From: an uncultured Elusimicrobium sp.
GTDB lineage: Bacteria > Elusimicrobiota > Elusimicrobia > Elusimicrobiales > Elusimicrobiaceae
Direction of reading: 5' to 3'
Assembly (NCBI GenBank): GCA_902766765.1
Contig: CACXER010000037.1
Coordinates: 1 to 35,159, forward strand
DNA length: 35,159 bases
Below are positions 2,969 through 35,153 of this stretch, one piece after another (within the stretch, counting starts at the first letter, position 1; each line of letters starts with the position of its first letter). Below the pieces are notes generated by a model. That model made no database searches. It was not told where the DNA came from and worked only from the letters and a program-made list of their open reading frames with translations. The translations under genes were made by a program, and so were the position numbers.

Positions 2969-3994
2969 CTACTCCAACCGGATGCGCGGATCCACCGCTG
3001 TATATAAAATGTCTGATAGCAAGTTACCCAACACAAACAATACCGCTACCATCAGCGAAAACCCCAAAATTCCCGCAATATCCAACTGTTGTGCGGCGAG
3101 TACCCCAAACCGACCAATTCCGGGATAATCAAAAATAGTTTCCACAATGACCGTTCCGCCCAATAGACGAATAAATTGAATACTGGCCAGTGTAATCACG
3201 GGGATGATGGCATTTTTTCCGGCGTGCTTATAAATAATTTGCCGCGGAGTAAGGCCTTTAGCGCGGGCCGTACGCACATAATCTTTATTTAATTCTTCCA
3301 ACATACTGGAGCGCATTACCCGCACCATCAGCGCAAATGAACCAATACACAACGTTACCGCGGGCAACACCAAGTGCGAAAGAACATCCCAAAACACCCG
3401 CCAATTACCATTTAATAGGGAGTCTATAAGTAAGAAGCCGGTATAGGTTTTGAACGTAGATCCGTGGATGATAAGATCGGTCTGAAATGAATATCCGCCC
3501 GGGGCAAACCAACCGAGTTTCCCGTAAAAAATCATCAGCAGCAACAACCCAAGCACAAAAATAGGAAGCGAAAATCCCCCCACGCTGATAATCCGTGCCA
3601 AACTGTCTTGCCATTTATCTTTATGCACCGCAGAAAAGGCCCCAAACCATACCCCAAAAAACACCACCAGCAACATCGTTACAAACGCCAGCTGTACCGT
3701 GGCCGGCAAATATTCTTTAAGGGCACGCGACACCGGCATATTCGCGCTGGGGCTATATCCCAAATCACCGTGAATTACCTGACCGAGCCAACGCCCGTAT
3801 TGCTTAAATACATTGTCCCGCAGGCCGTACTGCCGGATGACTTCCTCCAGCGCGCCCATTTGGCGCGGATCTTTGACATACAAAGACGCGCGCATCTCCG
3901 GGCTTAAACGCTGGGTGAGGAAGAACAACAAAAAAGTCACCCCGAGCACCACGAGCGGTAAAAGTAACAACCTGCGGGCAATGTAACGAACCAT
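2969..3994 (-). CDS. dppB: Peptide ABC transporter permease, DppB/OppB type
   Basis: Partner permease of 341 residues. It starts with the classic MVRYIARRLLLLPLVVLGVT membrane helix, followed by the periplasmic segment (RQYGLRDNVFKQYGRWLGQ, then GDLGYS) found in all DppB/OppB proteins. The EAA-type loop is DYVRTARAKGLTPRQIIYKHA and the end is TAVDPRIRLE. It would form the heterodimeric channel with the downstream dppC-type permease. The start follows the peptidase gene by eight bases with an AAGGGA ribosome site. Placing a peptidase gene directly before the permeases suggests that imported peptides are cleaved at once. Confidence 0.93.
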   Translation of the reverse strand: MVRYIARRLLLLPLVVLGVTFLLFFLTQRLSPEMRASLYVKDPRQMGALEEVIRQYGLRDNVFKQYGRWLGQVIHGDLGYSPSANMPVSRALKEYLPATVQLAFVTMLLVVFFGVWFGAFSAVHKDKWQDSLARIISVGGFSLPIFVLGLLLLMIFYGKLGWFAPGGYSFQTDLIIHGSTFKTYTGFLLIDSLLNGNWRVFWDVLSHLVLPAVTLCIGSFALMVRVMRSSMLEELNKDYVRTARAKGLTPRQIIYKHAGKNAIIPVITLASIQFIRLLGGTVIVETIFDYPGIGRFGVLAAQQLDIAGILGFSLMVAVLFVLGNLLSDILYTAVDPRIRLE

Positions 3995-12058: not shown

Positions 12059-12094
12059 AAAAAAATCTCCGGCAATTTTTGCCGGAGATTTTTT
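12059..12094. terminator. Bidirectional rho-independent terminator
   Basis: TCTCCGGC and GCCGGAGA form a perfect stem with an AATTTTT loop, flanked by an A run on the left and a T run on the right. It can end both the plus-strand DJ-1 family unit and the convergent minus-strand pilin gene, whose stop codon touches it. Confidence 0.9.
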
Positions 12095-12632
12095 ATTGAA
12101 TCACATAAACTGTTCTTGTTGTACCTTCTACCGTTGTGGTTATGTTTTTACTAAACGATTGGCAAATCTTTAGCGGATCCCCTAACCCACCCGCTATACA
12201 ATACGTATTTGGATCATTTTCTATACGGAAAAACTCATAATAGGCGCTACCAGTACCTACTTCATTTTCTTTCCAACGATTTGAAATAGCAACACAAGCA
12301 ACGTCCCCAACACACTTTGTACCAAAATCAAAATGCTTTGTTTTTTTACGAGCCAACCCAGAATAAGTAAAATCCTCGCCCGGAATCCCAATATCCAATT
12401 CATCAAAATCATCGGCATATTTCCCGTTAGCTAAAAAATATCTTTCTTGTGCATCCCCAATAGCCTTTACCATCGTAAGCGCCTGCGTAGCACGTGATTT
12501 TTCCACCGCTTTATTGTATTGTGGCAAGGCCACTGCGGCTAAAATACCGATAATCAAAACAACTACCAGTAATTCGATTAGCGTAAATCCTTTGGTATCT
12601 AAAATACCCGATAAACAACTTTCCTTTTTCAT
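12093..12632 (-). CDS. Type IV prepilin (PilE/PilA-like major or minor pilin)
   Basis: Prepilin of 179 residues. A 14-residue leader ends in KG, followed by [24 protein letters not shown], so prepilin peptidase would cut before Phe and methylate it; Glu5 of the mature form is present. The globular part contains a disulfide-type pair (near CVGDVAC) and a late Cys pair (YCIAGGL..KIC), plausible for the pilin D-region. GGAGGG lies six bases before the ATG. It is monocistronic, with a promoter whose spacer is a T11 run. The form is strongly reminiscent of the many pilin genes of Elusimicrobium. Whether it is a pilus or pseudopilus subunit is open. Confidence 0.92.
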
Positions 12633-13619: not shown

Positions 13620-15308
13620 TTATTCCGCTAAAATTTTTAAGTTGCGTTTGGCTGTTTTGTTTTTGGAATCCAACTCCAACGCCCGACGGTAAAACTGCCG
13701 TGCGCTTTCGTCATTATCCGCAATGACGGCCGCCGTGCCGAGCCCCAATTGCGCAAGCGCGTCAGTCGGGCTTTGCGTAGCGGCCTCATTAAAATTTTTC
13801 TGCGCTGCGGCCGCATTTCCGCGTGCCAAAGCGGCTAGCCCTTTCAACAAGGCACATATATTTCCCGCCGGACACGTATATTCTTGTAAATCTTCCTCGG
13901 CTTCGCTTACGAACTTGAGCCATGTGCGCCCCATAACCCACAGCCCCATATCGTTACCGACAATACGCGGGTCATATACGGCTTTCGGAGCCGTCGTGCG
14001 GTTCTGCGTAAGCGCACCGGGCGCGGCATAATCGGCAGTGCGGCCCTGTAAAGATAAATTGACCTGCATATCTTTCCCCTCTTTTACCGCTTGACGCACG
14101 GCCTCCGTAAAATCCTTGATTTGTTTAGCACGCACGTCAGATGCCGCCGCAGGGAGCGTAAACATCCGCTTAAATGCGCGGGGCATCTGATTAGATTGCA
14201 CCGACGATCCACCTATTCCCGATGACATCCGCATTTTTTGATACTCCCGCTCAAAACTGCCGCCCGCGCGGCCTTTGGGCAAAGAGTCTTCCTGCGGCGG
14301 CACATATTCCAGCGCCACTTCCACCTGGATCGGTTTTGAGGACGATACTTTAGATAAACTTTGCGCGAACTGTTCAATCTGTTTTTCAAACGCTTGCGGG
14401 GTTGTTCCGCTGGCCCGGTAGGCGGCATTTAATGCCAAGCCCTCATCGTTAAATTTGGAAATGGAAAAAGATTCTTCCAACACCTCACGGGCGGCGGCTT
14501 CGTTACCTAAACGAGTGAGCAAGAACGCATAACGAAGACGCGCCACGTAATCGCCGGGCTTTGTTTTAACGGCTTTTTTATAAAATTTGAGTGCCTCTTG
14601 GTTGCGGCCCATATTCTCGTACAAAGCGGCTAAACTGAGTTGCGCGTCTTCGTAATTTGAAAAATAATGCAGGGCCTTCTTGAACGATTCTTCCGCCTGG
14701 GCATCTCGTCCTAACGCTTCATAGAGCGTGCCGAGTTGGTAGTGATAGAGCGGCTCGCGCGGGGCGAGTTCACTGGCGCGGCGAAAATGTTCTAATGATT
14801 TCTCTAAATCTTTTTGCACGGCGTAGGTGGAACCTAAATTCATGTGCGTATCGGCTTTGTTAGCGTCCAAACGATTAGCCGTTAAAAAATAATCTTGCGC
14901 GGCGGAAATATCGCCTTTCCACCCGGCGGCAATCCCCAAAAGTTGATAAGCCATCGGATTTTGCGGGTCCAAACGCAGGGCTTCTTTATATTCGCTGATA
15001 GCATCGTCCACCTTGCCCGACCAATACAACGACGCGCCCAATAGCAGGTAACCCATAGGGTCTTTGGTGTTTTTTACGACGGCTTTAGCAAAACTGTTGG
15101 ACGCGTCTTGATAGCGGGCTTGGCTCATTTCGCCCATGCCGCGCAAAATATCGGAACGGGCCTGGTCTACCATCATCTGGTCCCAGACGGTTTGGGAATA
15201 ATCGGTTTTAATCGTAGGTTTACTAAATGAAAAAGGAAAGCGCGCGTGGGAAAATTCCGCGGCTACAAACAGAAAAATGCATATAAATAAACCGATTTTT
15301 TTCGTCAT
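13620..15308 (-). CDS. Exported TPR-repeat protein
   Basis: Protein of 562 residues with a Sec signal peptide (MTKKIGLFICIFLFVAAEFSHA). Tandem TPR units run from about residue 50 to 290, with typical W/Y-L-x-x-G and A-x-x-x-Y-x-x-A-L-x-x-x-P patterns, for example KVDDAISEYKEALRLDPQNP and KDLEKSLEHFRRASELAPRE. A central unassigned part (about 290-460, with VEVALEYVPP) follows, then two more TPR units at the C-terminus. Its role is presumably scaffolding in the periplasm. It stands directly downstream of the unassigned envelope cluster and may be a partner, but it has its own start region: TATCAT lies six bases before ATG and there is no ribosome site. rsmA follows in the same transcript. Confidence 0.85.
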   Translation of the reverse strand: MTKKIGLFICIFLFVAAEFSHARFPFSFSKPTIKTDYSQTVWDQMMVDQARSDILRGMGEMSQARYQDASNSFAKAVVKNTKDPMGYLLLGASLYWSGKVDDAISEYKEALRLDPQNPMAYQLLGIAAGWKGDISAAQDYFLTANRLDANKADTHMNLGSTYAVQKDLEKSLEHFRRASELAPREPLYHYQLGTLYEALGRDAQAEESFKKALHYFSNYEDAQLSLAALYENMGRNQEALKFYKKAVKTKPGDYVARLRYAFLLTRLGNEAAAREVLEESFSISKFNDEGLALNAAYRASGTTPQAFEKQIEQFAQSLSKVSSSKPIQVEVALEYVPPQEDSLPKGRAGGSFEREYQKMRMSSGIGGSSVQSNQMPRAFKRMFTLPAAASDVRAKQIKDFTEAVRQAVKEGKDMQVNLSLQGRTADYAAPGALTQNRTTAPKAVYDPRIVGNDMGLWVMGRTWLKFVSEAEEDLQEYTCPAGNICALLKGLAALARGNAAAAQKNFNEAATQSPTDALAQLGLGTAAVIADNDESARQFYRRALELDSKNKTAKRNLKILAE

Positions 15309-15356: not shown

Positions 15357-15391
15357 TTAAAACACCGGGGCGGCTATTATTGCCGCCCCGG
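15357..15391 (-). terminator. Rho-independent terminator of the giant Cys-repeat gene
   Basis: A perfect ten-base-pair GC stem (15365-15374 with 15382-15391) with a seven-base loop is followed on the minus strand by TGTTTTAA. It lies about 30 bases after the stop of the 1333-residue gene and separates it from the TPR gene. Confidence 0.85.
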
Positions 15392-15420: not shown

Positions 15421-18400
15421 CTAGTTGGAAGGGTCCGTTCCAGGAGCACCGCCGTCACTGGTAGGCGATTGTCCGGGCACATACTCGGCTTTGCCCATAC
15501 CTTTGGGTTTATAATCCAACCCGGCGGAACAGACACCTTGTATGTACTTCAATACATCGGCGACTGCCATGGTATTATTGCCGGCAAAGGCCTCACACGC
15601 CGTACCGTTACCGAAGCCGCCTTGGTCTTTAATCAACCCGGCAAAACCACTAAACGAGTTGTATTGTGACACATAATTAGTACCACTTATATTTCTACAA
15701 CCGCGTGTATTGCCTTGGCAATCATGCCGTAAGTCACTATGACCTTTCACCAAGTCTTTAAGCGGCGCATCTCTCATGATGGGCGTTAGCGTTTCTTTGA
15801 ACTTGGCTAAGTTATTAAACCTAGTCCCGTTGTAGTTGTTGTACGCATACCCTTTACCCATTTCTATACCTTGTGCAGACGGACATCCGCCAAACACGAG
15901 ACCTTTGGGTTGGAAGCGCCAGTCGCAAACTTCTTGACCGTCTACCGACACGTACGCATCCGGATATAACACCGACGTATCGTGGATGTAGGCCAAGTAA
16001 GCACCTAACTCGTTATGGAAGTAACGTTCTTCCGCTTTTTGCCCTGGCGTACCAATCATTTTCCGTCCGCCAGCGTGTTTATCTTTGGACATACGGGTGA
16101 AATCGCGTCCTAATTCACACACGGCCGCCGTGGAAACTTTATCCAAACCTGGCAAGTTTTCCTTAGCCGCAATTTGCAAGGCATCGATGAATTCGCCGTC
16201 CGTCGGATATTCAGCGGTAAACTGAATCGGCAAGACATCCGCATTGTCTTTATATTTTGTGTTATACGCGTCACGTACTGCCTTGACGAATTCAGTTGCT
16301 TTTTTAGAATCCATGGTATAGCCGAACAAGTCGTCGCAGAATTGCCGCCCTTGGCAACCGCGGCAGGAACTGCCCGCCGAGTGAGGATACGTCTTCACAA
16401 GCGGACTTGTAAACGTACTCGCGCTAAGCGGATGTTCTGCCGTTACGGCTTTACGATCTTGCGGTTGAGTCGGCACCCATTTGATGTACGGGGCAAACAC
16501 AGTAACCGGGGTCGTAGCCGGAGGAGGCGTGCGTTTCGTTTTGGGTGTCACGTTACATTTCGTACCGTCCCACGCATACGTATTGGCGGGATCTTGCGCA
16601 CCGAACTTAGCACAGCAGTCTTCACTATCGTCTTTGGTCCGACAATCCTCCGGAATCGTTCCTTTCGGCGTCACGTTACATTTTGTACCGTCCCACGCAT
16701 ACGTATTGGCGGGATCTTGCGCACCAAACTTAGCACAGCAATCCTCACTATCGTCTTTGGTTTTGCACTCCGCAGACGGATCCGTTTTCGGCGTGAGGTT
16801 ACATTTGCCGTCTTTCCACTCAAAGTTATATTTGTGGTTTTCGGCAAATTCCGCACAACATTCCGCGCTCGTTTCAGCCCCTTTCGGACATTCCTTTTCT
16901 TCTACGGTAATAGAAGTACCGTCCGCAGCCAAATTGACTTTACACTCAGCATAGTCAACCACTTGTCCGCCACGGAGCAAGTCCCACCGGACCGTACCTT
17001 GTAATTGTGAAGGGTCTAACTTGTTGTTTACACCCGTAACATTACCTTTATCATCTACAGACACTACTAAAGGCCGTGTAAACGTATAGGTAAATGTCTG
17101 TCCGACTTGTTGAGCAGGTTTTTGCTCAAAGTCTTGAATGACTCCTTCTTGTCCTCCAACTAAAGGCGTATATGTTGCCTTCACTTTGATATCTTTCCAA
17201 TTTGCTTGCGGTATGGAAAGTCCTTTGTAACCTTGCTTGAAAGTTACCGTAGCCGTTGGTAACGATGCAGCATCCGATACGTTAGTACAGTTGATACTTA
17301 CCGTATCGTTGAACATACACCGTTCACCCATTACGTAGTTTTCACCCTCTTTACGGAGTTTGCGATTGTCTACGTTGAGATGCCACACGGCACTGTTGCG
17401 CTGGGACGAAGTTTTCTGATGCCGCACATACGCATCATAGAACCGCCAATATAACATCGGTAAATTGACGGCATCCCCGTCAGAGATAATCCCAAACCAA
17501 CCACGGGCCGCTAAGCGTTTTTTAGCCGCGAAAGACTCAATAAACATCAAGTCCAACTGGTTAAAAGCATTGCGAGCTTCCACCGGGATTTTTTCTTCTT
17601 CCATGCCTTGTTTCTTAAGCAAAGCGGCAAACTGTTCAATCATCGTTGTTTGGAAGTTATCATAATTGAACGTATCGCCCTTTTGCACATAAATCACACA
17701 GCCATGTTCCGGGTTTTCCGGATCAATTTGCGCCATATCCGAAACTAACGGAGCGTCTTTAGTGCGGCGGGTTCTGGTTGTTTTATCATCTTTTTCATCT
17801 CTGGCCGTTTGACCGTCGAATTCTTCTTCGTACTGCCGATATCCGGCCCCCGCAGACACTTCAGCCCCAATTTTGAGGCGATCGCTTTCTTTGGAGCACA
17901 GGAAGTTGCGCTTTCTATCGCTACCTTTCAACTGAAGTTTGGAAGATTCCGGCAGATAGTTACGCGCCACTACATAGATGTACGTGTTCCATTTGCCGAC
18001 TTCGCCATCTGCTTTGACCTGATACAGGTTCTTCATGTTTCCGCACGCAGTTGCCTCTTTCAAAGAACCTCCGACGAGTGCACCCAAACACTGCTTGCGG
18101 ATTTGCCAACCGGAAAGATGTTGGTCACCGCCACCATGGCCAGCATCCCACCATTTGGCTTTTGAGCAAGAGATATTTTTGTCAAAATTGGCACGTTTTT
18201 TTAATTTATCACAACTCGCTTTTCCAAAAGGGCCATATTCGTCAGCATCCCAATCTTTTTCTTTGACACCACAGCAGGTCGGGGCTTTCCCACCAGCACC
18301 ATCTCCGGAGCCTAAGAATGTTTCCGGGTCACCAGAATCGTTACCCATCACTAAACAGTTGAAGATACCTCCTAACCACGTCTGCACCAACTTCGTGGCC

Positions 18401-19422
18401 CAGTCCGCCCAGCCCCAAGCGTAGTTGAACCATTTTTCCCAGCGCATTTGTTCGCGGGTTTTCATCAGGTCCCACCACCACGGTTCTTTGCCGTTAAAGG
18501 CAAATTCGCGGTGTAAGTTGCCGTTGCCGCCGCCCGGGCCGCCCAAATCGCCTCCCATAATTCCGCCGATACGGCCGGGTTCAATGGGTTTCATTTGCGC
18601 GTCCATAAGGGCTTGCATGGCGTTGCCTTTAGACATGGCGTCTTTACTGCGTTGCGCTTCTTTAGCGGCGCCTTGCCCAAAGTACGAGCGCGACGGTTTA
18701 CCCGCCGCTTGCAACGGTTGCAACGAAACAGGTTTCGTGCTGTTTCTCGGGCCTTCGCCACGCACACGTTGGGCCGCGGCTTTGAGGTTACCACCCCACG
18801 GAACTACCCGCAGACCACCACCGCCCCGGTTTACACCGCCGGGTTTAAGATTACCGATCGGCGTAGCCGCACGACGGAACGCCGCACGCGTTTGCGGAGC
18901 GGCATTTTTGCGGTGTCTGTAAATATTGGTGATGTTTTCTTCTTCGTCCATATCACTGCGACGATACGAAGACGCGGCCGAAGAATCTGCCAAGCCGCTG
19001 CGGTAAATATCCGCGAGCGATTCTTCTTGTTCTTCTTCGCCGCGGCGTTTACCGAAACCCACAATCAAATCCATGGAATCGCGGCCGGAAAGTTGTGAAA
19101 TCTGTCCGTCCGGGTCACCGGAAAAGTCAAAACCGGAACGATCCGGATTGACGATCGAATCCTCGTAACCGGGGGTAATCATCGGCACTTCGCCGTCTTC
19201 TACGTGGCCGCTGTACTTGTACAAGAACGGCAACAACAGAAGCGCGACCGCCGCCGCAATCAAGAACGGTGCATCCCGTTTCGTGCGCTCAAAGAGCGTT
19301 TGGCGGGGTTTACCGTCACTCCCGATTTTGGAGGGCATACGAGCAGCGAAAGATTTGGAAGCATTTTTGCTTTTAATCTTATCGCTAAAGGTGAAACTCT
19401 CCTTCTTTTTTTCCTCTGGCAT
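15421..19422 (-). CDS. Giant membrane-anchored Cys-rich protein of unknown function (cluster protein 1)
   Basis: Protein of 1333 residues that I cannot assign to a family. A basic/acidic cytoplasmic head of about 50 residues is followed by one membrane helix (51-70), so the bulk would lie outside the inner membrane. Then come an acidic/Arg-rich, Gly-rich flexible zone to about 305, a Trp-rich block (315-349, with WWW and WGWADW), a Cys-containing globular zone, an apparent beta-rich part (about 690-820), three 41-residue tandem repeats with CC and WDGTKCN motifs (about 835-958), and a C-terminal Cys-rich domain (about 960-1300, starting near SCRGCQGRQFCDD). Many cysteines suggest disulfides in an oxidising compartment. 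AGGAGG lies five bases before the ATG. It has its own strong promoter and a long leader, and is the last gene of the cluster. It may be a surface adhesin or a structural subunit; this is inference. Confidence 0.75.
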   Translation of the reverse strand: MPEEKKKESFTFSDKIKSKNASKSFAARMPSKIGSDGKPRQTLFERTKRDAPFLIAAAVALLLLPFLYKYSGHVEDGEVPMITPGYEDSIVNPDRSGFDFSGDPDGQISQLSGRDSMDLIVGFGKRRGEEEQEESLADIYRSGLADSSAASSYRRSDMDEEENITNIYRHRKNAAPQTRAAFRRAATPIGNLKPGGVNRGGGGLRVVPWGGNLKAAAQRVRGEGPRNSTKPVSLQPLQAAGKPSRSYFGQGAAKEAQRSKDAMSKGNAMQALMDAQMKPIEPGRIGGIMGGDLGGPGGGNGNLHREFAFNGKEPWWWDLMKTREQMRWEKWFNYAWGWADWATKLVQTWLGGIFNCLVMGNDSGDPETFLGSGDGAGGKAPTCCGVKEKDWDADEYGPFGKASCDKLKKRANFDKNISCSKAKWWDAGHGGGDQHLSGWQIRKQCLGALVGGSLKEATACGNMKNLYQVKADGEVGKWNTYIYVVARNYLPESSKLQLKGSDRKRNFLCSKESDRLKIGAEVSAGAGYRQYEEEFDGQTARDEKDDKTTRTRRTKDAPLVSDMAQIDPENPEHGCVIYVQKGDTFNYDNFQTTMIEQFAALLKKQGMEEEKIPVEARNAFNQLDLMFIESFAAKKRLAARGWFGIISDGDAVNLPMLYWRFYDAYVRHQKTSSQRNSAVWHLNVDNRKLRKEGENYVMGERCMFNDTVSINCTNVSDAASLPTATVTFKQGYKGLSIPQANWKDIKVKATYTPLVGGQEGVIQDFEQKPAQQVGQTFTYTFTRPLVVSVDDKGNVTGVNNKLDPSQLQGTVRWDLLRGGQVVDYAECKVNLAADGTSITVEEKECPKGAETSAECCAEFAENHKYNFEWKDGKCNLTPKTDPSAECKTKDDSEDCCAKFGAQDPANTYAWDGTKCNVTPKGTIPEDCRTKDDSEDCCAKFGAQDPANTYAWDGTKCNVTPKTKRTPPPATTPVTVFAPYIKWVPTQPQDRKAVTAEHPLSASTFTSPLVKTYPHSAGSSCRGCQGRQFCDDLFGYTMDSKKATEFVKAVRDAYNTKYKDNADVLPIQFTAEYPTDGEFIDALQIAAKENLPGLDKVSTAAVCELGRDFTRMSKDKHAGGRKMIGTPGQKAEERYFHNELGAYLAYIHDTSVLYPDAYVSVDGQEVCDWRFQPKGLVFGGCPSAQGIEMGKGYAYNNYNGTRFNNLAKFKETLTPIMRDAPLKDLVKGHSDLRHDCQGNTRGCRNISGTNYVSQYNSFSGFAGLIKDQGGFGNGTACEAFAGNNTMAVADVLKYIQGVCSAGLDYKPKGMGKAEYVPGQSPTSDGGAPGTDPSN
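16547..16915 (-). repeat. Three 123-bp in-frame tandem repeats inside the giant Cys-rich gene
   Basis: The string GT(CA/GA)CGTTACATTT-like begins at 16547, 16670 and 16793, an exact period of 123 bases (41 codons). The first two units are almost identical at DNA level, which suggests a recent duplication; the third is clearly diverged. Each unit encodes a pattern of one C, a CC pair and a final C within YAWDGTKCNVTPK or its variant. Confidence 0.92.
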
Positions 19423-19526
19423 AAGAGCCTCCTATCAAAAAAACGACTGTTTTTGGGGTCTCCCCCGGGGAACCTGGCTACTAAGCGCGGCTCCCGTATA
19501 CAACCAACTACATAAATAAAAACTTC

Positions 19527-19560
19527 GTTGTTCGGAGATGGCTACCCACTCCGTAACAAC
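19527..19560 (-). promoter_or_regulatory. Attenuator-like hairpin in the 5' leader of the giant Cys-rich gene
   Basis: GTTGTT-A-CGGAG pairs with CTCCG-AACAAC: 11 base pairs with one bulge and an 11-base loop, followed by GAAGTTTTTATTT on the minus strand. It lies inside the roughly 155-base leader between the promoter and the start codon. The leader also holds a G/C-rich stretch (about 19455-19475) and a T7 run just before the ribosome site. Confidence 0.5.
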
Positions 19561-19585
19561 TTACCCTTGAATACTACCTACTATT

Positions 19586-19617
19586 ATTATAACACTATTT
19601 CTCATTTTTTCAAGGGG
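19586..19617 (-). promoter_or_regulatory. Promoter of the giant Cys-rich gene
   Basis: Minus-strand TTGAAA (19608-19613), a 16-base spacer ending in TGT, and a perfect TATAAT (19586-19591) give an extended -10 promoter. CCCC precedes the -35 box. It starts just after the stop of the neighbouring cluster gene. Confidence 0.8.
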
Positions 19618-19654
19618 TAATTTTAAAGTTTTCTTAAACGACCTATTTATACTA

Positions 19655-21226
19655 CTATTTGGCAATATCGCCGTCCAACCACAACCCGGAACCCCAATCA
19701 AATCCGGGGAAGTAATCCGTATTTAAACGGTTATTTTTATAAAAGGTGGTCTGCACTTCTCCCGCTAAATCATCACTATCCCACGGATATCCTTCGTGCG
19801 ACTCATTAGAAGATATGCCCCCCCAATCTGCAAAACATTGGGCCTTGGCTTGGGCGCTTTCTTCGCTGTCGTCCGGCATTTCTTCACACTTTTGTTTTTC
19901 GGCGGCGCACATAGTCGCAAAATCTTCGTAGTAAGAGGCCAACTTGACAGACTCGCACTGGGAATCATTGACGAGCGAAAGCGTGGAACATCTATTTTGA
20001 ATTTGTTCATAGGCGGTTTTCATATTTTTACATGTATTGCTAATACTGGTCAACGTGCCCATATAGGTGCCGCCACCGTCTTCTACCGCCTCGCAATTTG
20101 CCGGGAAACTACCCGCCAATCCTTGGATTTGGGAGGCCAACTCTTCGTCATTAGCCATACCCATGCCCTGGTTGATGGCCTCCTGGCAATTTTTATCTTG
20201 ATCTAAATATTGTTGCACGCTATCCATATCGGCCAACACGTCATCGGCCCGGATACCCACGCCCGAAAACCCGGACGCAGTAAACACACTGCGCGGCATC
20301 TCGGCACCGTCAAAACTGGCGGAAGCGAGCGTCTTTTTAAGTAAAGTTTGCGGCGTGCGGCGGGCAGCGCGGCCCATCAGCCACGCCCAATACATATCGC
20401 GTTTGGCACGGGAATCACCCACTTTTGCCACATTACCGATTTGCGCAAGTGCGGTACCGCTATTATCTAATGCTTTGGAAAAATCGGTTAAATCGGTATC
20501 ACTGCGAACGGCTTTATCAATCGTGCGGCCCAGCCAGTCCATACCCGATGAACCCGCTATAGGTTTTATAGCCACTTTTTTAAATGTGTTGACGGAATTA
20601 TAACCGTCTTTTTTATCCCGAGCAATTAAAGAAGAATCTTCACCAAAAAACACATCCGCATTTTTGGCATTGTTGGCTTGTGTATTGGCAGTAGCGTCTT
20701 TATTGCCGATGCGCACCGTAGCATCATCTTCGCTAGCGGCCCCATTGGCACGCGCGGCATCTTGCGCGGGGTCGTAATAAGCACCGGCTAATTTGTCCCC
20801 TTTCTTGCCAGATTTTGCAAGTGCGGCATTGACGGAATTGATATCAATCAGTTTATTTTGCGCTTTATTCGTCGCCGAATTGAAAGCCCCCGCGTCTGCA
20901 CCGAAAACGGACATTTCATTGGGGTCGGGGATTTCTCCATTTAAAATTTTACGGTGCTCGTTCCAGGATAAAAGTGCTTTTAGAAAAGAAGTTTTCTGCC
21001 CTTCTTCGTAGGAATAACCCATGGCATACATCAGTTGCCGCAAGAACGGTATTTTACCGGCGGGAACAAAGGACAAAATCCCCAGTAAAATAAGCAACAC
21101 TACCGCCACACTCCATACTTTTTTGGAGTGATACCACCGCCGCCCCGACACCACCGGCACAACCGGTTGCGCCGCGACTTGTGCGGGAGCAGGTACAGTA
21201 GGTTGTTCTTGCGGTAAATTATCCAT
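19655..21226 (-). CDS. Membrane-anchored Cys-containing protein of unknown function (cluster protein 2)
   Basis: Protein of 523 residues, not recognised. A Pro/Gln/Ala-rich cytoplasmic head is followed by a basic stretch (RRWYHSKK) and one membrane helix (about 36-55), giving an N-in topology. The middle is Ala/Asn/Asp-rich. The C-terminal third (about 350-480) has eight cysteines in a mostly helical pattern (NCQEAI, NCEAV, TCKNM, RCSTL, QCESV, MCAAEKQKC, QCFADW), compatible with four disulfides. The last part is rich in aromatic residues and acidic. AGAGG lies five bases before the ATG. It follows cluster protein 3 after a strong intercistronic hairpin. Nothing suggests an enzyme; a structural or surface role is inferred. 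Confidence 0.75.
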   Translation of the reverse strand: MDNLPQEQPTVPAPAQVAAQPVVPVVSGRRWYHSKKVWSVAVVLLILLGILSFVPAGKIPFLRQLMYAMGYSYEEGQKTSFLKALLSWNEHRKILNGEIPDPNEMSVFGADAGAFNSATNKAQNKLIDINSVNAALAKSGKKGDKLAGAYYDPAQDAARANGAASEDDATVRIGNKDATANTQANNAKNADVFFGEDSSLIARDKKDGYNSVNTFKKVAIKPIAGSSGMDWLGRTIDKAVRSDTDLTDFSKALDNSGTALAQIGNVAKVGDSRAKRDMYWAWLMGRAARRTPQTLLKKTLASASFDGAEMPRSVFTASGFSGVGIRADDVLADMDSVQQYLDQDKNCQEAINQGMGMANDEELASQIQGLAGSFPANCEAVEDGGGTYMGTLTSISNTCKNMKTAYEQIQNRCSTLSLVNDSQCESVKLASYYEDFATMCAAEKQKCEEMPDDSEESAQAKAQCFADWGGISSNESHEGYPWDSDDLAGEVQTTFYKNNRLNTDYFPGFDWGSGLWLDGDIAK

Positions 21227-21238
21227 AAAAACCTCTAC

Positions 21239-21265
21239 CGGGGGAAAGTGTTATCTTTCCCCCGG
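21239..21265 (-). terminator. Intercistronic hairpin between cluster proteins 3 and 2
   Basis: GGGGAAAG and CTTTCCCC form a perfect eight-base-pair stem with a TGTTAT loop, extended by CC/GG across a bulged C. On the minus strand it is followed by TAGAGGTTTTT and the start codon, so it could be a partial terminator or an mRNA-stabilising/processing stem that sets gene ratios. Confidence 0.55.
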
Positions 21266-21272
21266 GGTTAAA

Positions 21273-22811
21273 TTAGGATTTGTTGTCTCCGTCACCATTT
21301 TTAAATACATCGCCGTCAGAATGGATGGCCTCTCCAAACATCTGGGCCACCGGCGTTAGAGAAGAAATACCGGCTTGTATAACTGCTTCTTTAAGTCTAT
21401 TCTTAGGACTGACGGCCTTACCACCGCCCTCACCGGCTTTATCAGCAGCATCTTCAGCACCGGACGTTGCATCTGCGCTAGCGCCTTTAATGGCCGTAAT
21501 GAGCGCCCAAGCAGCCCCAGCCAGACCGGCCGCCATACACGCGCCGGAGAGCAGGCCAAATTTATAGGTAGCCGCATAACGAATTGCGTGTGCCACCAAC
21601 GCCAAACAAGCCGCTATCACGATACCGGCCACAATCCAACCCAAGGCCTTCATGCTGATTCCCAAAATCGGGGCGTGGCTGGAAGCCATCAATGCTTTGA
21701 TAGCCGCCACACCAAGGACGGTTACCGGAATCATGACCAAAAGCATGGTATATAGCATATCCCGGGCCTTGTTACGTTCATCCTCAAAATCTTGGGTTTC
21801 ATCTTGTTTCTGTTTGATAGATCTATCTATTTCGGGCAACGCAGCCGCATACAAATCCGTGGAACCCGTCGACTGGGTATCTTCGCCAACCATTTCCACG
21901 CTCATGCCGCCGGATTGACTTTTATCCGCTAAGAACGGCATAGCACCTTCGTTGGATCGGCGGAAAGCATTGGCTGCCACTTTGGCCGACATCCGGCTCA
22001 TGTCTTTTAATTCATTTCCGGATGCTTGAATTTGGCTTGAACGGCCAAACGAAGATGAATTACGTGCACCACCTATGCCGTCCGAACGTCCCCGGCCGTC
22101 TAAACCGCCGAGTGAAACGGGATTCGTACCGCCGGGCATCGCGCCGGAAAATTTGTATCCGTCACTTGAGGAAGAAGGACTACCGCCACTCGCCCCGGAA
22201 GACACATTACCAAACGAACGCGCACCGGAAGAAGCCGTGTTGTTTATCCCGGAACCGGAAGCGCGCGTCATAGAAGCAGAGCCGAGTTGGTTACCCGCGC
22301 CCGCCGCCACTTTACCGGAGGCACCTTGTGCGTTGTTAGCACCCGTTGCGCCATTGGCACCACCCGCATTACCGGACGCTCCGGCAGAAAGGTCCATGGC
22401 TTCGTTACCACCCATGCCAAGCCCTTCGGTGTCGGACGTTTGCGCCGCCGCACCCGGAAAAGCCGCTCCGACGGAACTACCCAAATTATCCGCCGCACTC
22501 AAACCGAAATCGCCACCGCCGGTTCGTGCATTTTCCATTTGGGCACGTTCTTCCGCCGTAGCCACTTGGTTCAAAGAGTCCTTTACATTGATGGAGGTCA
22601 ACCCTTCCTGACCGCGTTGTTGCATTCCCCCATAGTTGTACGCGTTGGAAATAGACGAAAGCGAACGCACCGGTCTTCTTGCATCTATTTTTTTATCGCC
22701 CTCAAACGCAGTAAAAGCAATCACTAAACCTACCCCGGTAATCGTTACCATTTGCGGGATACCGAGGGTCAGTTTACCTGCTTTGTTTTTAAGTAAGCCA
22801 AACCAATTCAT
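21273..22811 (-). CDS. Multi-pass membrane protein with Gly/Ser-rich linker, unknown function (cluster protein 3)
   Basis: Protein of 512 residues, not recognised. One membrane helix is at about 17-36. A very Gly/Ser/Ala/Asn-rich, probably disordered segment (about 95-265) contains TEGLGMGGN (128-136) and QLGSASMTRASGSG (175-188). A conserved-looking block follows, AAN..RRSNEGAMPFLA....SGG (279-302), then a charged coiled-coil-like stretch (327-350). Three C-terminal membrane helices come next (about 352-372, 388-409, 418-441), with a charged, Gly-rich tail. The first motif and the block also occur in cluster protein 5, and QLGSAS in protein 6, so the three are related or interacting. AAAGGAG lies seven bases before the ATG. 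The three-helix end may form a membrane platform; this is inference. Confidence 0.78.
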   Translation of the reverse strand: MNWFGLLKNKAGKLTLGIPQMVTITGVGLVIAFTAFEGDKKIDARRPVRSLSSISNAYNYGGMQQRGQEGLTSINVKDSLNQVATAEERAQMENARTGGGDFGLSAADNLGSSVGAAFPGAAAQTSDTEGLGMGGNEAMDLSAGASGNAGGANGATGANNAQGASGKVAAGAGNQLGSASMTRASGSGINNTASSGARSFGNVSSGASGGSPSSSSDGYKFSGAMPGGTNPVSLGGLDGRGRSDGIGGARNSSSFGRSSQIQASGNELKDMSRMSAKVAANAFRRSNEGAMPFLADKSQSGGMSVEMVGEDTQSTGSTDLYAAALPEIDRSIKQKQDETQDFEDERNKARDMLYTMLLVMIPVTVLGVAAIKALMASSHAPILGISMKALGWIVAGIVIAACLALVAHAIRYAATYKFGLLSGACMAAGLAGAAWALITAIKGASADATSGAEDAADKAGEGGGKAVSPKNRLKEAVIQAGISSLTPVAQMFGEAIHSDGDVFKNGDGDNKS

Positions 22812-22829
22812 AAGTAGTCTCCTTTATGT

Positions 22830-23105
22830 TTACCGTTTAATACCGTCCATGGCGTTTTGCACACCGCTGCGGGTGGCTTTTTCCTCTAACAGACGCTGCT
22901 CATACGCCGCTTGGCGCCGCTGACGCTCCACCTGCACACGATGCTTTTCTTGTTGGGCGCGTTGCGCTTCTTTAATGACGCGGTATTCATTACACGCTAC
23001 AAAACACCCGCCGAACAACCACCCAAGCCACAACCCCAGGAAAATCAACCCGGGTAAAACTCTGTGTTTCTTTTGAGGTACAATCACTATATTATCTAAT
23101 TCCAT
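22830..23105 (-). CDS. Small membrane protein with coiled coil (cluster protein 4)
   Basis: Protein of 91 residues. A short cytoplasmic head (MELDNIVIVPQKKHRV) is followed by one membrane helix (about 15-37, LPGLIFLGLWLGWLFGGCFVA). After that comes a long, highly charged helix (about 42-80) rich in Arg, Gln, Glu and Ala, typical of a coiled coil. It is reminiscent in layout of FtsB/FtsL-like bitopic proteins, but no specific motif supports homology. GAGGT lies five to six bases before the ATG. It starts eight bases after the cluster protein 5 stop and ends 18 bases before protein 3, so it is surely part of the operon. Confidence 0.8.
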   Translation of the reverse strand: MELDNIVIVPQKKHRVLPGLIFLGLWLGWLFGGCFVACNEYRVIKEAQRAQQEKHRVQVERQRRQAAYEQRLLEEKATRSGVQNAMDGIKR

Positions 23106-23113
23106 GTTCTACC

Positions 23114-24688
23114 TCATTTAAATGGTATAAGGCCTTTCATATACTCCAAGAGTTGGCCCGGATTTTTGAGTGCTTGACCAAAACTGGAGAGGGCATCCTT
23201 CGCACCTGACATCCAACCTTTGATAGCCGCAATACCGTCCTTCATCCAACCGTAAATATCCAAGAAGAACGACGCTCCAATACCAAGTGCAAAAACAATA
23301 CCCGAGATACCAGCCCACGTACTCCACGCCGATCCGCCATACTCACTGGCATACTTCCCGGCCCTGATACACAGGTTCACACAGGCAGCGAGTGCAACAA
23401 ATGCCACTGCGGCGGCAATCAAGTAAAACACCCACGCGTAAGGACCTCCTGCGGCAGCACCCTTCATGGCAGCGCTAATTAAAATCATAGCAATAACCGT
23501 ACCAATAGCTACACCTATCCACAGGTTAAACAATTTAGTGTAATCCACTAACTTTTTGGTATTGAAATCAAGCGTCTCTGTCCCAAACGTTTGAATGGCA
23601 CCTAACGTATTACCAAAGGATGTATTAAAATCTGTAGAAGTCCCCTGGCTGGAGTTGGCTTGAAAATTATCTTTCGTTACCATGACCCCGCCGGAAAGTT
23701 GCGTGCTGGCTAAGAACGGACGCATCCCTTCGTTAGCCGCACGGTTTTTATTGGCAGCAATATCCGCAGAGTGCTTGCGGATTTGTTCTAATTCCACATC
23801 GCCTTTTGTACTGCGGCCACCTTTGCCAATAGTGGCATTGCGGTTGTTACCCAAATTTTCCGTATCGCCAAACGAGGATTTCCCGCGGATGCGTGCCCCG
23901 TCTAACATGCTTTGGGCTTGCGCCTGCATATTGGCTATTTGCTGGGTCACATCTCCCGCCGCCGCTCCGTTACCTTTATTTTTATTTTTTCCGCTATCCT
24001 GTATGCTAAAGGTAGAACTGCTGCTCCCGGATCCACCGGAACCGCCACTACCAAATTTAGAACCCCAATCCGCTTGCGCACTGGCTAAGGCAGGAGCACC
24101 CGCAGCAGCGGCTTCGCCACCCGGGGCTTTACCCTGGGCCGCGGCTTGGGCTTGCTGTTGGGCGTTGGCAATCATACCTTGAATATTACCCATGGAACCG
24201 GCCATCGCCGCCATCGGGTTATTACTGCCGCTGGCTAAGCCGTTATCATTGACGGCATTTGCCCCCATTCCCAATCCTTCCGTACCGCCTGTTTCATACG
24301 CGGCTAACGGATCAGACGAGGCCGAAGACGACGCCTGAATACTGGAAGATTCTTCCGCCATTTCACGCGCGGCTTGTTCGGCCTGTGCTTGACGGTCTAA
24401 CCGGTTGAGCGCTTTGGCCGACACATTAAACGACGAATTTTGTTCTGCCGCACCATTACCATAGTACGAGCCCCGCTCATAACTACCCGAATTGGCCCCG
24501 GCCACATACACCACTTCGCCCGCGTCCTGTTGGAACGGGTTATAGGCGGTATTATCTTCCCCGCTACCGCCGATATATTGCCACGCGGCCAAACCGGCCA
24601 CGCCCACTACAGCGGCAATCCCCCCTGCCTGCAAGGCAGAAAGTGCCATTTTACCGCTGCGGTTAAAAAATTTCAGTAAGTTTTTCAT
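23114..24688 (-). CDS. Multi-pass membrane protein with disordered linker, unknown function (cluster protein 5)
   Basis: Protein of 524 residues, a likely paralogue of cluster protein 3. It has one membrane helix at about 17-38, then a Gln/Ala/Ser/Gly-rich region with TEGLGMGAN (136-144) and a GSGGSGGSGSSSS linker (213-225). The block AAN..RAANEGMRPFLAST.LSGG (311-334) matches protein 3. Three C-terminal membrane helices follow (about 388-410, 416-440, 455-477), then an amphipathic tail. ATG 24688 is used rather than an upstream in-frame codon, because AGGAGG lies six bases before it, overlapping the stop of protein 6. No enzyme motif is seen. VirB6/TrbL-like channel proteins were considered but have more helices and different layouts. 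Confidence 0.8.
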   Translation of the reverse strand: MKNLLKFFNRSGKMALSALQAGGIAAVVGVAGLAAWQYIGGSGEDNTAYNPFQQDAGEVVYVAGANSGSYERGSYYGNGAAEQNSSFNVSAKALNRLDRQAQAEQAAREMAEESSSIQASSSASSDPLAAYETGGTEGLGMGANAVNDNGLASGSNNPMAAMAGSMGNIQGMIANAQQQAQAAAQGKAPGGEAAAAGAPALASAQADWGSKFGSGGSGGSGSSSSTFSIQDSGKNKNKGNGAAAGDVTQQIANMQAQAQSMLDGARIRGKSSFGDTENLGNNRNATIGKGGRSTKGDVELEQIRKHSADIAANKNRAANEGMRPFLASTQLSGGVMVTKDNFQANSSQGTSTDFNTSFGNTLGAIQTFGTETLDFNTKKLVDYTKLFNLWIGVAIGTVIAMILISAAMKGAAAGGPYAWVFYLIAAAVAFVALAACVNLCIRAGKYASEYGGSAWSTWAGISGIVFALGIGASFFLDIYGWMKDGIAAIKGWMSGAKDALSSFGQALKNPGQLLEYMKGLIPFK

Positions 24689-24698
24689 ATCTGGCCTC

Positions 24699-25778
24699 CT
24701 AAGAGTTACATTTAACATTGCCATCTTTATCTACTGTATATCCTTTACCTTTACAAATACCACTACCACTATTGTTATTTCCAGAAGAACTGCCGGACGG
24801 AGTAATATCCCAGTGCTGATACAAATAGTCCTTCCCTAAACTCATTGCCGCGTCTGTAAGGCCGTTGACTAAGCCCTCCACCCACGCATGCCACAATCTT
24901 GTCCAAAAATCTTCTTTGGGGTCATTATTATTTTTTGCATCATTAACCCCATCATTTACTTTATCATCCAAATTGCTCAAATCGGCAGATGAAACTGGCG
25001 CGTTGGTATCTAGTGCTAATCCTCCGGTCTTGCTCAAATCTACCCCTTTATCGGTAAACGCTTCGCTCCCAGCGATATCGCCCCCCATTAGGGCTCTTTT
25101 GGCATTGCCGGATTTACCGTCTTTTAATCCCGCAGCCGCCTGACTGCCGCGCGCAAATTGATAAAGCGCTTTGCGGGCGTCTTGGTTTTTGAGTTGGTAA
25201 TTGGTCGGAATTTCGCGGCCCTTATTCTGGTTCTTGAAATTAGAAAAATCGCCGCGCGGCGCACCGAAACTGCCACTCACCCCACTACCGCTTGCATGCG
25301 TCGTGCTGGCCGAACCTAACTGATTGATTTGCGTAGGCGTACCTGTTCCGCGGCCACCGCCATAACTGCGTCCGCTATATCCGTTACTCGTTACATCACT
25401 GGAGGAATAAGACGAATCACTATTACCGGAGGAAGAATCTTCCTCATCATTTTCTTCTTCCGCCAAAGCATCGGCTTCCTGCCGGGCTTCTTTTTCTTCG
25501 GCAGAGTATAATAAGGTGGAGCCGTTTTCTTGCATATCCGGGTATTTATTAGCAAGCAGGAATTGTTCGGCTTCGTCGTTGACGAACGGCATTTGGGCTA
25601 AGTCGTAGCCGCGTGTGTCCATGTTTGTAAATGACGGATCAGCCGGCGTAGAAATAAATGAAATGAGCGTAAGTAGCGAAATTAAACATACAATAATAAT
25701 CGCCCCCCACGTATAGGCTTGTTTCCTATCCATGTGGTTTATCTTTTGGAATACGTTTCCCGGTTTTAATTTAAACAT
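24699..25778 (-). CDS. Membrane-anchored disordered protein of unknown function (cluster protein 6, first gene)
   Basis: Protein of 359 residues, first gene of the cluster. One membrane helix lies at about 24-43. An acidic stretch (about 92-114, many Glu) is followed by a Ser/Gly/Tyr-rich linker. QLGSASTTHASGSG (153-166) matches the motif in cluster protein 3. A Trp-rich amphipathic segment (292-323, FWTRLWHAWVEG) resembles the Trp-rich block of the giant protein. The tail holds two cysteines (CKGKGYTVDKDGNVKC), similar in style to the Cys repeats of the giant protein. The ATG at 25778 is chosen (GAGGG four bases upstream) over a TTG 63 bases earlier. The function is unknown; an extracytoplasmic structural part is inferred. 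Confidence 0.78.
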   Translation of the reverse strand: MFKLKPGNVFQKINHMDRKQAYTWGAIIIVCLISLLTLISFISTPADPSFTNMDTRGYDLAQMPFVNDEAEQFLLANKYPDMQENGSTLLYSAEEKEARQEADALAEEENDEEDSSSGNSDSSYSSSDVTSNGYSGRSYGGGRGTGTPTQINQLGSASTTHASGSGVSGSFGAPRGDFSNFKNQNKGREIPTNYQLKNQDARKALYQFARGSQAAAGLKDGKSGNAKRALMGGDIAGSEAFTDKGVDLSKTGGLALDTNAPVSSADLSNLDDKVNDGVNDAKNNNDPKEDFWTRLWHAWVEGLVNGLTDAAMSLGKDYLYQHWDITPSGSSSGNNNSGSGICKGKGYTVDKDGNVKCNS

Positions 25779-25872
25779 AAAGCCCTCGCGCACATAATAA
25801 TAAAAATCACTCTCGTTGACCCGCCCTTCCCAGGCACTCAAACAAAGAGTTTATACACACTGCTTCTATTAA

Positions 25873-25906
25873 AGTATAGGTAGAAAAAGGAAAATTGTCA
25901 AGGGGG
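25873..25906 (-). promoter_or_regulatory. Promoter of the unassigned envelope cluster
   Basis: On the minus strand a perfect TTGACA (25896-25901), a 17-base spacer and TATACT (25873-25878) form a near-consensus promoter, preceded by CCCCC. The leader to the first gene is about 90 bases. Confidence 0.88.
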
Positions 25907-25993: not shown

Positions 25994-26548
25994 CTACGGC
26001 GCAACACATACGTGAGCGGAATCTTTGGTTATGACCCCTTTGTCTTTCGCCGCCGCGACCTCAGCCGGGCATTTTTCCCACGATCTAAACGCTTCCGCCA
26101 TGGATACATAACGTACATTCATGTGAGAAACCACTCCCGTAATCCAAGCGAAGAAACCGTCCTGTCGAACTAAGGAAGGATTTTCCTCTACTGCCTGGGC
26201 TAAACTGACCTTTCCCAACATGATTTGCGCCAGCACCAAAAATTCCGGTGCTACCGAGGCCTCAAACACCACATAACCGGGCGTTGCTCTGCCGTTCACA
26301 ATGGCTACCGGAGCATCCGGAGGTAATTGTTTTTTTAATCGTTGAGATAGTACAATTACCTGATCCGCCAACTGAGCAACCTTCTCGAACTGGCCGTCTT
26401 CGACCGCTTGATTCATATCCACAATCTTTTCTTCCAATGTATCCGCCAGGGCGTTAGCAGAACCTTGATTCGAATGTGCAGAAAGAGTGCCCGCTACCGC
26501 GAAAGAACCTAGTCCGACCATAAACATAATGAGTAACAGTTTTTTCAT
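25994..26548 (-). CDS. Small exported protein of unknown function
   Basis: Protein of 184 residues with a Sec signal peptide (MKKLLLIMFMVGLGSFAVAG). The mature part begins with a helical, acidic segment (about 33-80, heptad-like ALADTLEEKIVDMNQAVEDG and LADQVIVLSQRLKK), followed by a region with WITGVVSHMNVRYVSMAEAF. Two cysteines near the end (KCPAEV and HVCVAP) could form a disulfide. I do not recognise the family. GGGAGG lies seven bases before the ATG. It is monocistronic, with a good promoter and terminator of its own, and its promoter shares the CCCCTTGA string with the adjacent cluster, so joint regulation is possible. Confidence 0.75.
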   Translation of the reverse strand: MKKLLLIMFMVGLGSFAVAGTLSAHSNQGSANALADTLEEKIVDMNQAVEDGQFEKVAQLADQVIVLSQRLKKQLPPDAPVAIVNGRATPGYVVFEASVAPEFLVLAQIMLGKVSLAQAVEENPSLVRQDGFFAWITGVVSHMNVRYVSMAEAFRSWEKCPAEVAAAKDKGVITKDSAHVCVAP

Positions 26549-34962: not shown

Positions 34963-35037
34963 CGGGGAGTGGCTCAGAGGTAGAGCGCTCGCTTGGGGTG
35001 CGAGAGATCGCGGGTTCGATTCCCGCCTTCCCGACCA
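34963..35037 (+). tRNA. tRNA-Pro (anticodon GGG)
   Basis: A cloverleaf can be drawn: acceptor CGGGGAG with CTTCCCG (one G-U pair), anticodon stem CTCGC/GCGAG, loop TTGGGGT with anticodon GGG, TpsiC loop GGTTCGATTCC. The discriminator base is A and CCA is encoded. It reads CCC and CCU. Confidence 0.96.
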
Positions 35038-35077
35038 TTTGAAAACTTGATTTGCGCCGATTATCGGCGAATATTTA

Positions 35078-35153
35078 CGGGGCGTAGCGCAGATGGTAGC
35101 GCGCACGGTTCGGGACCGTGAGGTCGCTGGTTCAAATCCAGTCGCCCCGACCA
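35078..35153 (+). tRNA. tRNA-Pro (anticodon CGG)
   Basis: Acceptor CGGGGCG with CGCCCCG, anticodon stem CACGG/CCGTG, loop TTCGGGA with anticodon CGG, T loop GGTTCAAATCC, discriminator A, encoded CCA. It reads CCG. It lies 40 bases after the first proline tRNA; the spacer contains a small CGCCGA/TCGGCG hairpin that may help processing. Confidence 0.96.

What the first reader, a model, noticed from the sequence alone, without database searches (positions are those of the whole stretch)
15421..25906. Six-gene cluster of unassigned membrane-anchored proteins, possibly a new envelope or surface machine
Seen: six adjacent same-strand genes (359, 524, 91, 512, 523 and 1333 residues) all begin with a short cytoplasmic head and one membrane helix. 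Three carry long Gly/Ser/Asn-rich linkers, two end in three membrane helices, and three have Cys-rich C-terminal parts. None shows a motif of an enzyme, ATPase or known secretion system that I recognise. The cluster has a near-consensus promoter, tight spacing and a strong final terminator. Inference: the proteins form one assembly that crosses or decorates the envelope, with the giant Cys-repeat protein as the probable exposed part. No ATPase is encoded, so any energy source or export route would have to lie elsewhere.
Basis: partly seen in the sequence, partly recalled or inferred. Interest (0 to 1): 0.85.

Follow-up and report, generated by a model that had tools for sequence, protein, structure and literature searches.

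The report
Tad-pilus-linked six-gene envelope module
Six side-by-side genes of unknown families in gut Elusimicrobiaceae turn out to be the fast-evolving tail end of a Tad (type IVc) pilus locus, so they most likely build a membrane-anchored attachment of that pilus rather than a free-standing new machine.

Summary
The six genes are real, and Pfam, NCBIfam, PHROGs and PDB searches name no family for them. They are not a stand-alone machine. In 38 of 42 testable loci from relatives, the cluster (p1-p6) starts 73-357 bp after a TadE-like minor pilin gene, which follows a TadG-like gene. The complete Tad core lies upstream: CpaB/RcpC, secretin, TadZ-TadA fusion ATPase, TadB, TadC, TadE. In the window's own genome the same core sits on another contig (C20), so the missing ATPase exists and p1-p6 has been moved. 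Gene order is conserved through the genus and, with divergence, in other genera of the family and in one genome of a second family. p2 and p4 are paralogues. p6 carries an Ig-like domain and 34 cysteines; p5 has a helical Cys-rich domain without a fold match. Best reading: an inner-membrane-anchored accessory module that couples to the Tad machine and its minor-pilin tip, with p6 the most exposed part. The link to Tad is strong; the mechanism is inferred. Tad in Elusimicrobia was already reported; I found no description of this module. Verdict: new variant of a known kind.

The parts
24699..25778 (-). p1, 359 aa: basic cytoplasmic head, one TM helix, conserved RGYDLAQMPF-NDEAEQYLLA-KYPDM block, linker, variable C-terminus
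   Evidence: ORF; alignment of 51 rows; hydropathy
23114..24688 (-). p2, 524 aa: N-terminal Gly/Ala-rich TM helix, Gly/Ser/Ala linker with GLGMGAN and RSADxAxNxxRxANEGxxxFLA motifs, three C-terminal TM helices; paralogue of p4
   Evidence: (HHalign probability 100, E 6.5e-51 to p4)
22830..23105 (-). p3, 91 aa: one TM helix and a charged helix
   Evidence: order p2-p3-p4 or p2-p4-p3 in relatives
21273..22811 (-). p4, 512 aa: paralogue of p2, same architecture
19655..21226 (-). p5, 523 aa: one TM helix, mostly helical, C-terminal Cys-rich helical domain (about residues 325-510) modelled with high confidence and without a fold match
15421..19422 (-). p6, 1333 aa: very conserved cytoplasmic head (SFTFSDK...TLFERTKRDAPF) and TM helix, long linker, PWWWD block, variable Cys-rich part with an Ig-like domain (about residues 707-836), 41-residue Cys repeats and a helical C-terminal part
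25873..25901 (-). promoter-like TTGACA-17-TATACT before p1; not conserved upstream of p1 in relatives, where p1 follows tadE2
19586..19613 (-). promoter-like TTGAAA-16-TATAAT before p6 (11 of 12 also in L073, L087 and L110)
15365..15391 (-). terminator-like hairpin after p6
13620..15308 (-). TPR-repeat protein (562 aa) that follows p6 in many relatives but can be absent from the unit

Best explanation
p1-p6 are an accessory module of the Elusimicrobiaceae Tad (type IVc) pilus, encoded in the common arrangement right behind its minor-pilin cassette (Flp-like, TadG-like, TadE-like). Shown: gene linkage, conserved order, presence of the Tad core in the same genome, absence of any known family. 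Inferred: the proteins sit in the inner membrane by their N-terminal helix (p2 and p4 also by C-terminal helices) and reach into and across the periplasm with flexible Gly/Ser linkers; they meet each other, or a shared partner, through linker motifs of the kind shared by p1 with p4 and by p1 with p6; the complex docks on the TadB/TadC platform and the unusually short secretin, guides or holds the minor-pilin tip, and presents the variable Cys-rich, Ig-containing p6 as the most exposed part. TadZ-TadA supplies the energy. In this genome the module has moved away from the Tad core but should still work with it.
For: Linkage: of 42 loci with p1 and enough upstream DNA, 38 have tadE2 73-357 bp upstream of p1 on the same strand, and tadG overlaps or abuts tadE2. 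Own genome: contig C20 has RcpC/CpaB (PF16976, 1e-18), secretin (PF00263, 2e-42), TadZ-TadA fusion (PF00437 6e-61; TadA model TIGR03819 3e-98), two T2SSF proteins, two TadE sites, a TadG-like and three Flp-like ORFs, one of them directly before tadG. Unit: three relocated cases (window, G019, G105) keep p1-p6 together in different surroundings; in G105 the relocated module still lies on the same contig and strand, p6 ending about 11.6 kb before TadZ-TadA. Age: distant versions in genus g6 (p5 2e-5, p6 1e-5), genus g4 (p1 1e-40, p4 8e-13, p5 2e-17) and a second family, G030 (p5 1e-16). Shared motif p1/p4 and p1/p6 beats local-shuffle and reversed controls. The secretin has 247 aa and matches only the C-terminal part of secretin models (GspD 401-591 of 600). 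Module genes evolve faster (median identity 30-53%) than the neighbouring TPR and ksgA (62%) and than TadZ-TadA (83-94% in the genus).
Against: No protein of the module resembles any known Tad component, and no physical contact is shown. The tadE2-p1 linkage is broken in four of 42 loci and in the probable E. minutum genome, where p5 and p6 lie apart from each other and from Tad. Two related f2 genomes (G111, G045) have Tad with TadG/TadE2 but no p5 match, so Tad can work without the recognisable module. Inside the family both Tad and the module are close to universal, so their co-occurrence there is not informative. Whether p6 is outside the cell or in the periplasm cannot be told from sequence.
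Confidence: 0.62

Rival explanations
1. The module proteins are the cargo: surface adhesins or contact-dependent effectors that the Tad pilus exposes or delivers, comparable in use to the Kil system of Myxococcus. Conserved N-terminal halves dock in the envelope; the variable C-terminal parts (Cys-rich p6 and p5, membrane-active C-termini of p2 and p4) act on target cells.
For: C-terminal parts are much less conserved than N-terminal parts; p6 has an Ig-like domain and species-specific Cys repeats; the cassette in front (Flp-like, TadG, TadE) resembles tip-gene clusters with adapter pilins described for Kil in PMC12075869.
Against: All six keep an N-terminal membrane anchor and no release or cleavage site was found; no toxin or enzyme family matches; nothing is known of predation in these bacteria from this work.
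Confidence: 0.2
2. An independent envelope complex that only happened to sit next to the Tad locus in the ancestor; it works without the pilus.
For: The unit moves as a block away from tadE2 in several lineages and keeps its internal order; no sequence relation to Tad parts.
Against: Adjacency in 38 of 42 testable loci over wide divergence, and diverged but still tadE2-adjacent versions in genera g4 and g6.
Confidence: 0.13
3. A remnant or new form of a conjugation-type (type IV) secretion system, with p2/p4 as VirB6/TrbL-like and p6 as VirB10-like.
For: Architecture only: signal-anchor proteins, Gly-rich linkers, C-terminal helices.
Against: No such match in Pfam, NCBIfam or PDB sequence searches for any member, including a 37-row p2/p4 alignment and a 54-row p5 alignment.
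Confidence: 0.03

Closest known systems
Tad / type IVc pilus (Flp, TadV, RcpC/CpaB, RcpA/CpaC, TadZ, TadA, TadB, TadC, TadE-G)
   Same: The genes upstream in relatives, and contig C20 of this genome, encode recognisable Tad core parts; p1-p6 are encoded with them
   Different: None of p1-p6 is a known Tad component; TadZ and TadA are fused in one 772-aa protein; the secretin has only 247 aa
Kil system of Myxococcus xanthus (Tad pilus with exchangeable minor-pilin tips, PMC12075869, PMC8460266)
   Same: A cassette of a small Flp-like pilin with TadE/TadG-like minor pilins
   Different: Kil tip proteins are pilins; p1-p6 show no pilin signature that I could support; no predation is known here
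Tad systems detected in Elusimicrobia by Denise et al. 2019 (PMC6668835)
   Same: Same phylum; presence of Tad was reported there
   Different: The passages read name only the presence of Tad systems; the accessory genes are not mentioned in them

Membership tests
Tad / type IVc pilus (for the locus as a whole) | TadA-type ATPase | tested here: met
   PF00437 5.7e-61 (over cut-off) and TIGR03819 3.4e-98 (329 bits, below its 373-bit cut-off) on L056:5635-7950, own contig C20
Tad / type IVc pilus (for the locus as a whole) | TadZ ParA-like protein | tested here: met
   N-terminal CbiA/ParA domain of the same fused protein, PF01656 3.4e-7, over cut-off
Tad / type IVc pilus (for the locus as a whole) | Two platform proteins TadB and TadC | tested here: met
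   Two adjacent T2SSF proteins, 2.4e-17 and 1.3e-15
Tad / type IVc pilus (for the locus as a whole) | Outer-membrane secretin and RcpC/CpaB | tested here: met
   PF00263 2.2e-42 (247-aa protein) and PF16976 1.4e-18
Tad / type IVc pilus (for the locus as a whole) | TadE-like minor pilins | tested here: met
   PF07811 over cut-off twice on C20, 43.9 and 25.1 bits
Tad / type IVc pilus (for the locus as a whole) | Flp pilin | tested here: inconclusive
   PF04964 below cut-off (18.2 bits, C20:16172); small ORFs of 58-76 aa with G-Q-x-x-(V/I)-E-Y motifs in the right places
Tad / type IVc pilus (for the locus as a whole) | Prepilin peptidase TadV | tested here: inconclusive
   One PF01478 protein on contig C4, 4e-21, not near Tad and possibly shared with type IVa pili
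Known Tad components (for p1-p6 themselves) | Sequence match of p1-p6 to a Tad or pilin family | tested here: not met
   No match over cut-off in Pfam, NCBIfam, PHROGs; none in PDB sequences for p2/p4, p5 and p6. Hence p1-p6 are filed as associated genes, not as Tad components
Conjugative / type IV secretion (VirB6, TrbL, VirB10) | Profile match of p2/p4 or p6 | tested here: not met
Kil-type tip system | Tip complex of TadE/F/G-like pilins that primes the pilus and recognises prey | not testable with these tools
   TadE/TadG-like genes precede p1; function needs experiments

The most novel reading that the evidence does not exclude
The Elusimicrobiota Tad machine uses an undescribed set of six inner-membrane-anchored, flexible-linker proteins as its own periplasmic bridge between platform and a truncated secretin, with a giant variable Cys-rich protein at the exposed end: a new class of accessory complex in type IV filaments.
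Probability: 0.33. Interest if true: 0.75.

Novelty: new variant of a known kind. Interest (0 to 1): 0.55.

Why it matters
Tad pili are widespread, and what their variable tips and accessory parts do is being worked out only now. This locus gives an old, conserved, lineage-specific module without known relatives that can be tested against a well-understood machine, and it turns six unnamed gene families of gut bacteria into a concrete hypothesis.

Tried and rejected
A stand-alone machine: rejected because of Tad linkage and the Tad core on C20. Known-family assignment by Pfam, NCBIfam, PHROGs and PDB sequence profiles: nothing over cut-off. p5 fold search: no match with E <= 0.001, helical-bundle level only, best Z 7.6. 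p6 fold search: only the Ig-like segment is covered; other parts remain untested. Prepilin-like N-termini for p2/p4: a conserved Gly before the TM helix was noted, but no Glu at +5, so I do not claim pilins. Homology of all six to each other: only p2/p4 are paralogues; p4/p6, p1/p5, p4/p5 and p5/p6 do not exceed shuffled controls. A conserved promoter before p1: not conserved in relatives, so the window's promoter is probably tied to the new location. The p6 Cys-repeat pattern was seen again only in the nearest relative among the loci checked. Neighbour u25 is rare in the genus and gives no hint.
Full report
Observation. One N-terminal hydrophobic helix each and three extra C-terminal helices in p2 and p4 are borne out by hydropathy. 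Cysteines are plentiful in p6 (34) and p5 (8) but not in p1. The promoter and terminator exist. A 232-bp gap before p6 with its own promoter-like site suggests that p6 may also be transcribed apart.

No known family. Single-sequence scans gave nothing over a curated cut-off for p1-p6 in Pfam and NCBIfam and nothing in PHROGs. Alignments of p2/p4 (37 rows), p5 (54 rows) and p6 (58 rows) found no credible PDB sequence, and member-by-member Pfam scans of p2/p4 and p5 gave only scattered weak membrane or coiled-coil hits.

Conservation. p6 is found in 39 of 150 sampled genomes of the phylum, all in one family: 30 genomes of the window's genus counting itself, eight of genus g2 and one of g3. The single contig of the g3 genome (1,643,562 bases) has the size I remember for Elusimicrobium minutum; the handle itself is unnamed. 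A scan of one genome per species (GTDB r220) gave 73 loci; the titles name Elusimicrobium, Elusimicrobia, Elusimicrobiaceae, Elusimicrobiales, Elusimicrobiota or Avelusimicrobium, a few only 'uncultured bacterium'. In these the order is p1-p2-p3-p4-p5-p6 or, in one subgroup, p1-p2-p4-p3-p5-p6, followed in many by the TPR gene and ksgA.

The Tad link. Reading further upstream in relatives showed two-component regulators, a TadG-like gene (AQILLPAVLLAP...) and a TadE-like gene (GQATTEVVLLFP...) directly before p1. The TadE domain rings in 39 of 40 family genomes, usually at two sites about 16 kb apart. The stretch between them encodes RcpC/CpaB, a secretin, a fused TadZ-TadA protein, TadB and TadC. 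Of 42 loci with p1 and at least 1.5 kb upstream, 38 have tadE2 73-357 bp before p1. The window's genome holds the same core on contig C20, where tadE2 is followed by unrelated genes: here p1-p6 has been moved. G019 shows another relocated copy with different neighbours. In G105 the module lies on the other side of the Tad locus, on the same contig and strand, p6 ending about 11.6 kb before TadZ-TadA. p1-p6 stays together in each case. The near-consensus promoter of the window is not found before p1 in relatives (0 of 27 reach 10 of 12 matches), which fits a unit that was read from the Tad side and gained its own promoter after moving; this is inference. A misassembly of the window's contig is possible but would not explain the other relocated copies.

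Depth. The distal module reappears in diverged form in genus g6 (eight genes of similar architecture after tadE2; p5-like 2e-5, p6-like 1e-5), in genus g4, and in a genome of a second family, G030, where p1-, p4- and p5-like genes and, by eye, a p6-like gene lie side by side, away from its Tad ATPase. Two other f2 genomes have the TadG/TadE2 pair followed by one or two genes, one of them with a membrane helix and a Gly/Ser-rich linker, and no p5 match. So the module is accessory to Tad, not part of every Tad system. TadZ-TadA itself is found in 39 of 48 sampled genera of the phylum. Tad in Elusimicrobia was reported before (PMC6668835).

Anatomy. p2 and p4 are paralogues over nearly their whole length. 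p1 shares a 26-residue linker motif with p4 and with p6, above locally shuffled and reversed controls. The p6 head and membrane helix are the most conserved parts of the protein; the part after the PWWWD block varies and carries the cysteines. The p6 model (residues 311-1333, mean pLDDT 74) contains an Ig-like domain at about 707-836 (Z up to 9.1 to antibody variable domains, about 95 residues, rmsd about 3; a fold likeness only). The p5 model has a confident helical Cys-rich C-terminal domain with no fold match. Module genes diverge faster than their neighbours.

Mechanism. Shown: linkage, order, envelope-type anatomy, a Tad core in the same genome. Inferred: the products form an inner-membrane-anchored set that reaches through the periplasm and serves the Tad pilus. 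The secretin of these Tad loci is short (about 245-260 aa) and matches only the C-terminal part of secretin models, so other proteins probably make the periplasmic connection; from my own knowledge typical Tad secretins are longer. A small Flp-like gene, tadG and tadE2 stand in front of p1, a layout that recalls the adapter-plus-tip cassettes of the Kil pilus (PMC12075869). Hence I favour a role in holding, guiding or exposing the pilus tip, with p6 the most exposed part. The cargo/effector reading is the main rival.

Verdict. New variant of a known kind; moderate interest.

Noticed in passing
L056:5635-7953 (own contig C20): TadZ and TadA are fused into one 772-aa protein; related fused-length proteins (about 720-790 aa) occur across the class and parts of the phylum.
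   Followed up: partly
L056:4887-5630 and equivalents in L058, L060, L062, L064, L065: The Tad secretin is only 245-260 aa long and lacks the N-terminal part of known secretin models.
   Followed up: partly
L056:3149-3334, 3357-3587, 18092-18268: Three small Flp-like ORFs in one Tad locus, one of them directly before tadG, as an adapter pilin would be.
   Followed up: partly
L056:14392-18091: A sensor kinase and two response regulators lie inside the Tad locus in most relatives; two-component control of Tad or its tip is likely.
   Followed up: no
L180:3626-5272 (probable E. minutum): A type IV pilin of 548 aa with 50 cysteines in tandem repeats, unusual for a pilin.
   Followed up: partly
window 12093-12632: An isolated type IVa-like pilin gene ([25 protein letters not shown]) near ksgA; similar lone pilins are scattered through relatives' loci.
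   Followed up: no
window 25994-26548: A secreted-type 184-aa protein directly upstream of the module, found in only 4 of 41 genus genomes (own included).
   Followed up: partly
L034, L131-L134: In genus g2 p1 is duplicated (two p1-type genes of about 450 and 330 aa before the p2/p4-type gene).
   Followed up: no
window 34963-35153: Two tRNA-Pro genes (GGG and CGG anticodons) at the right end of the contig.
   Followed up: no
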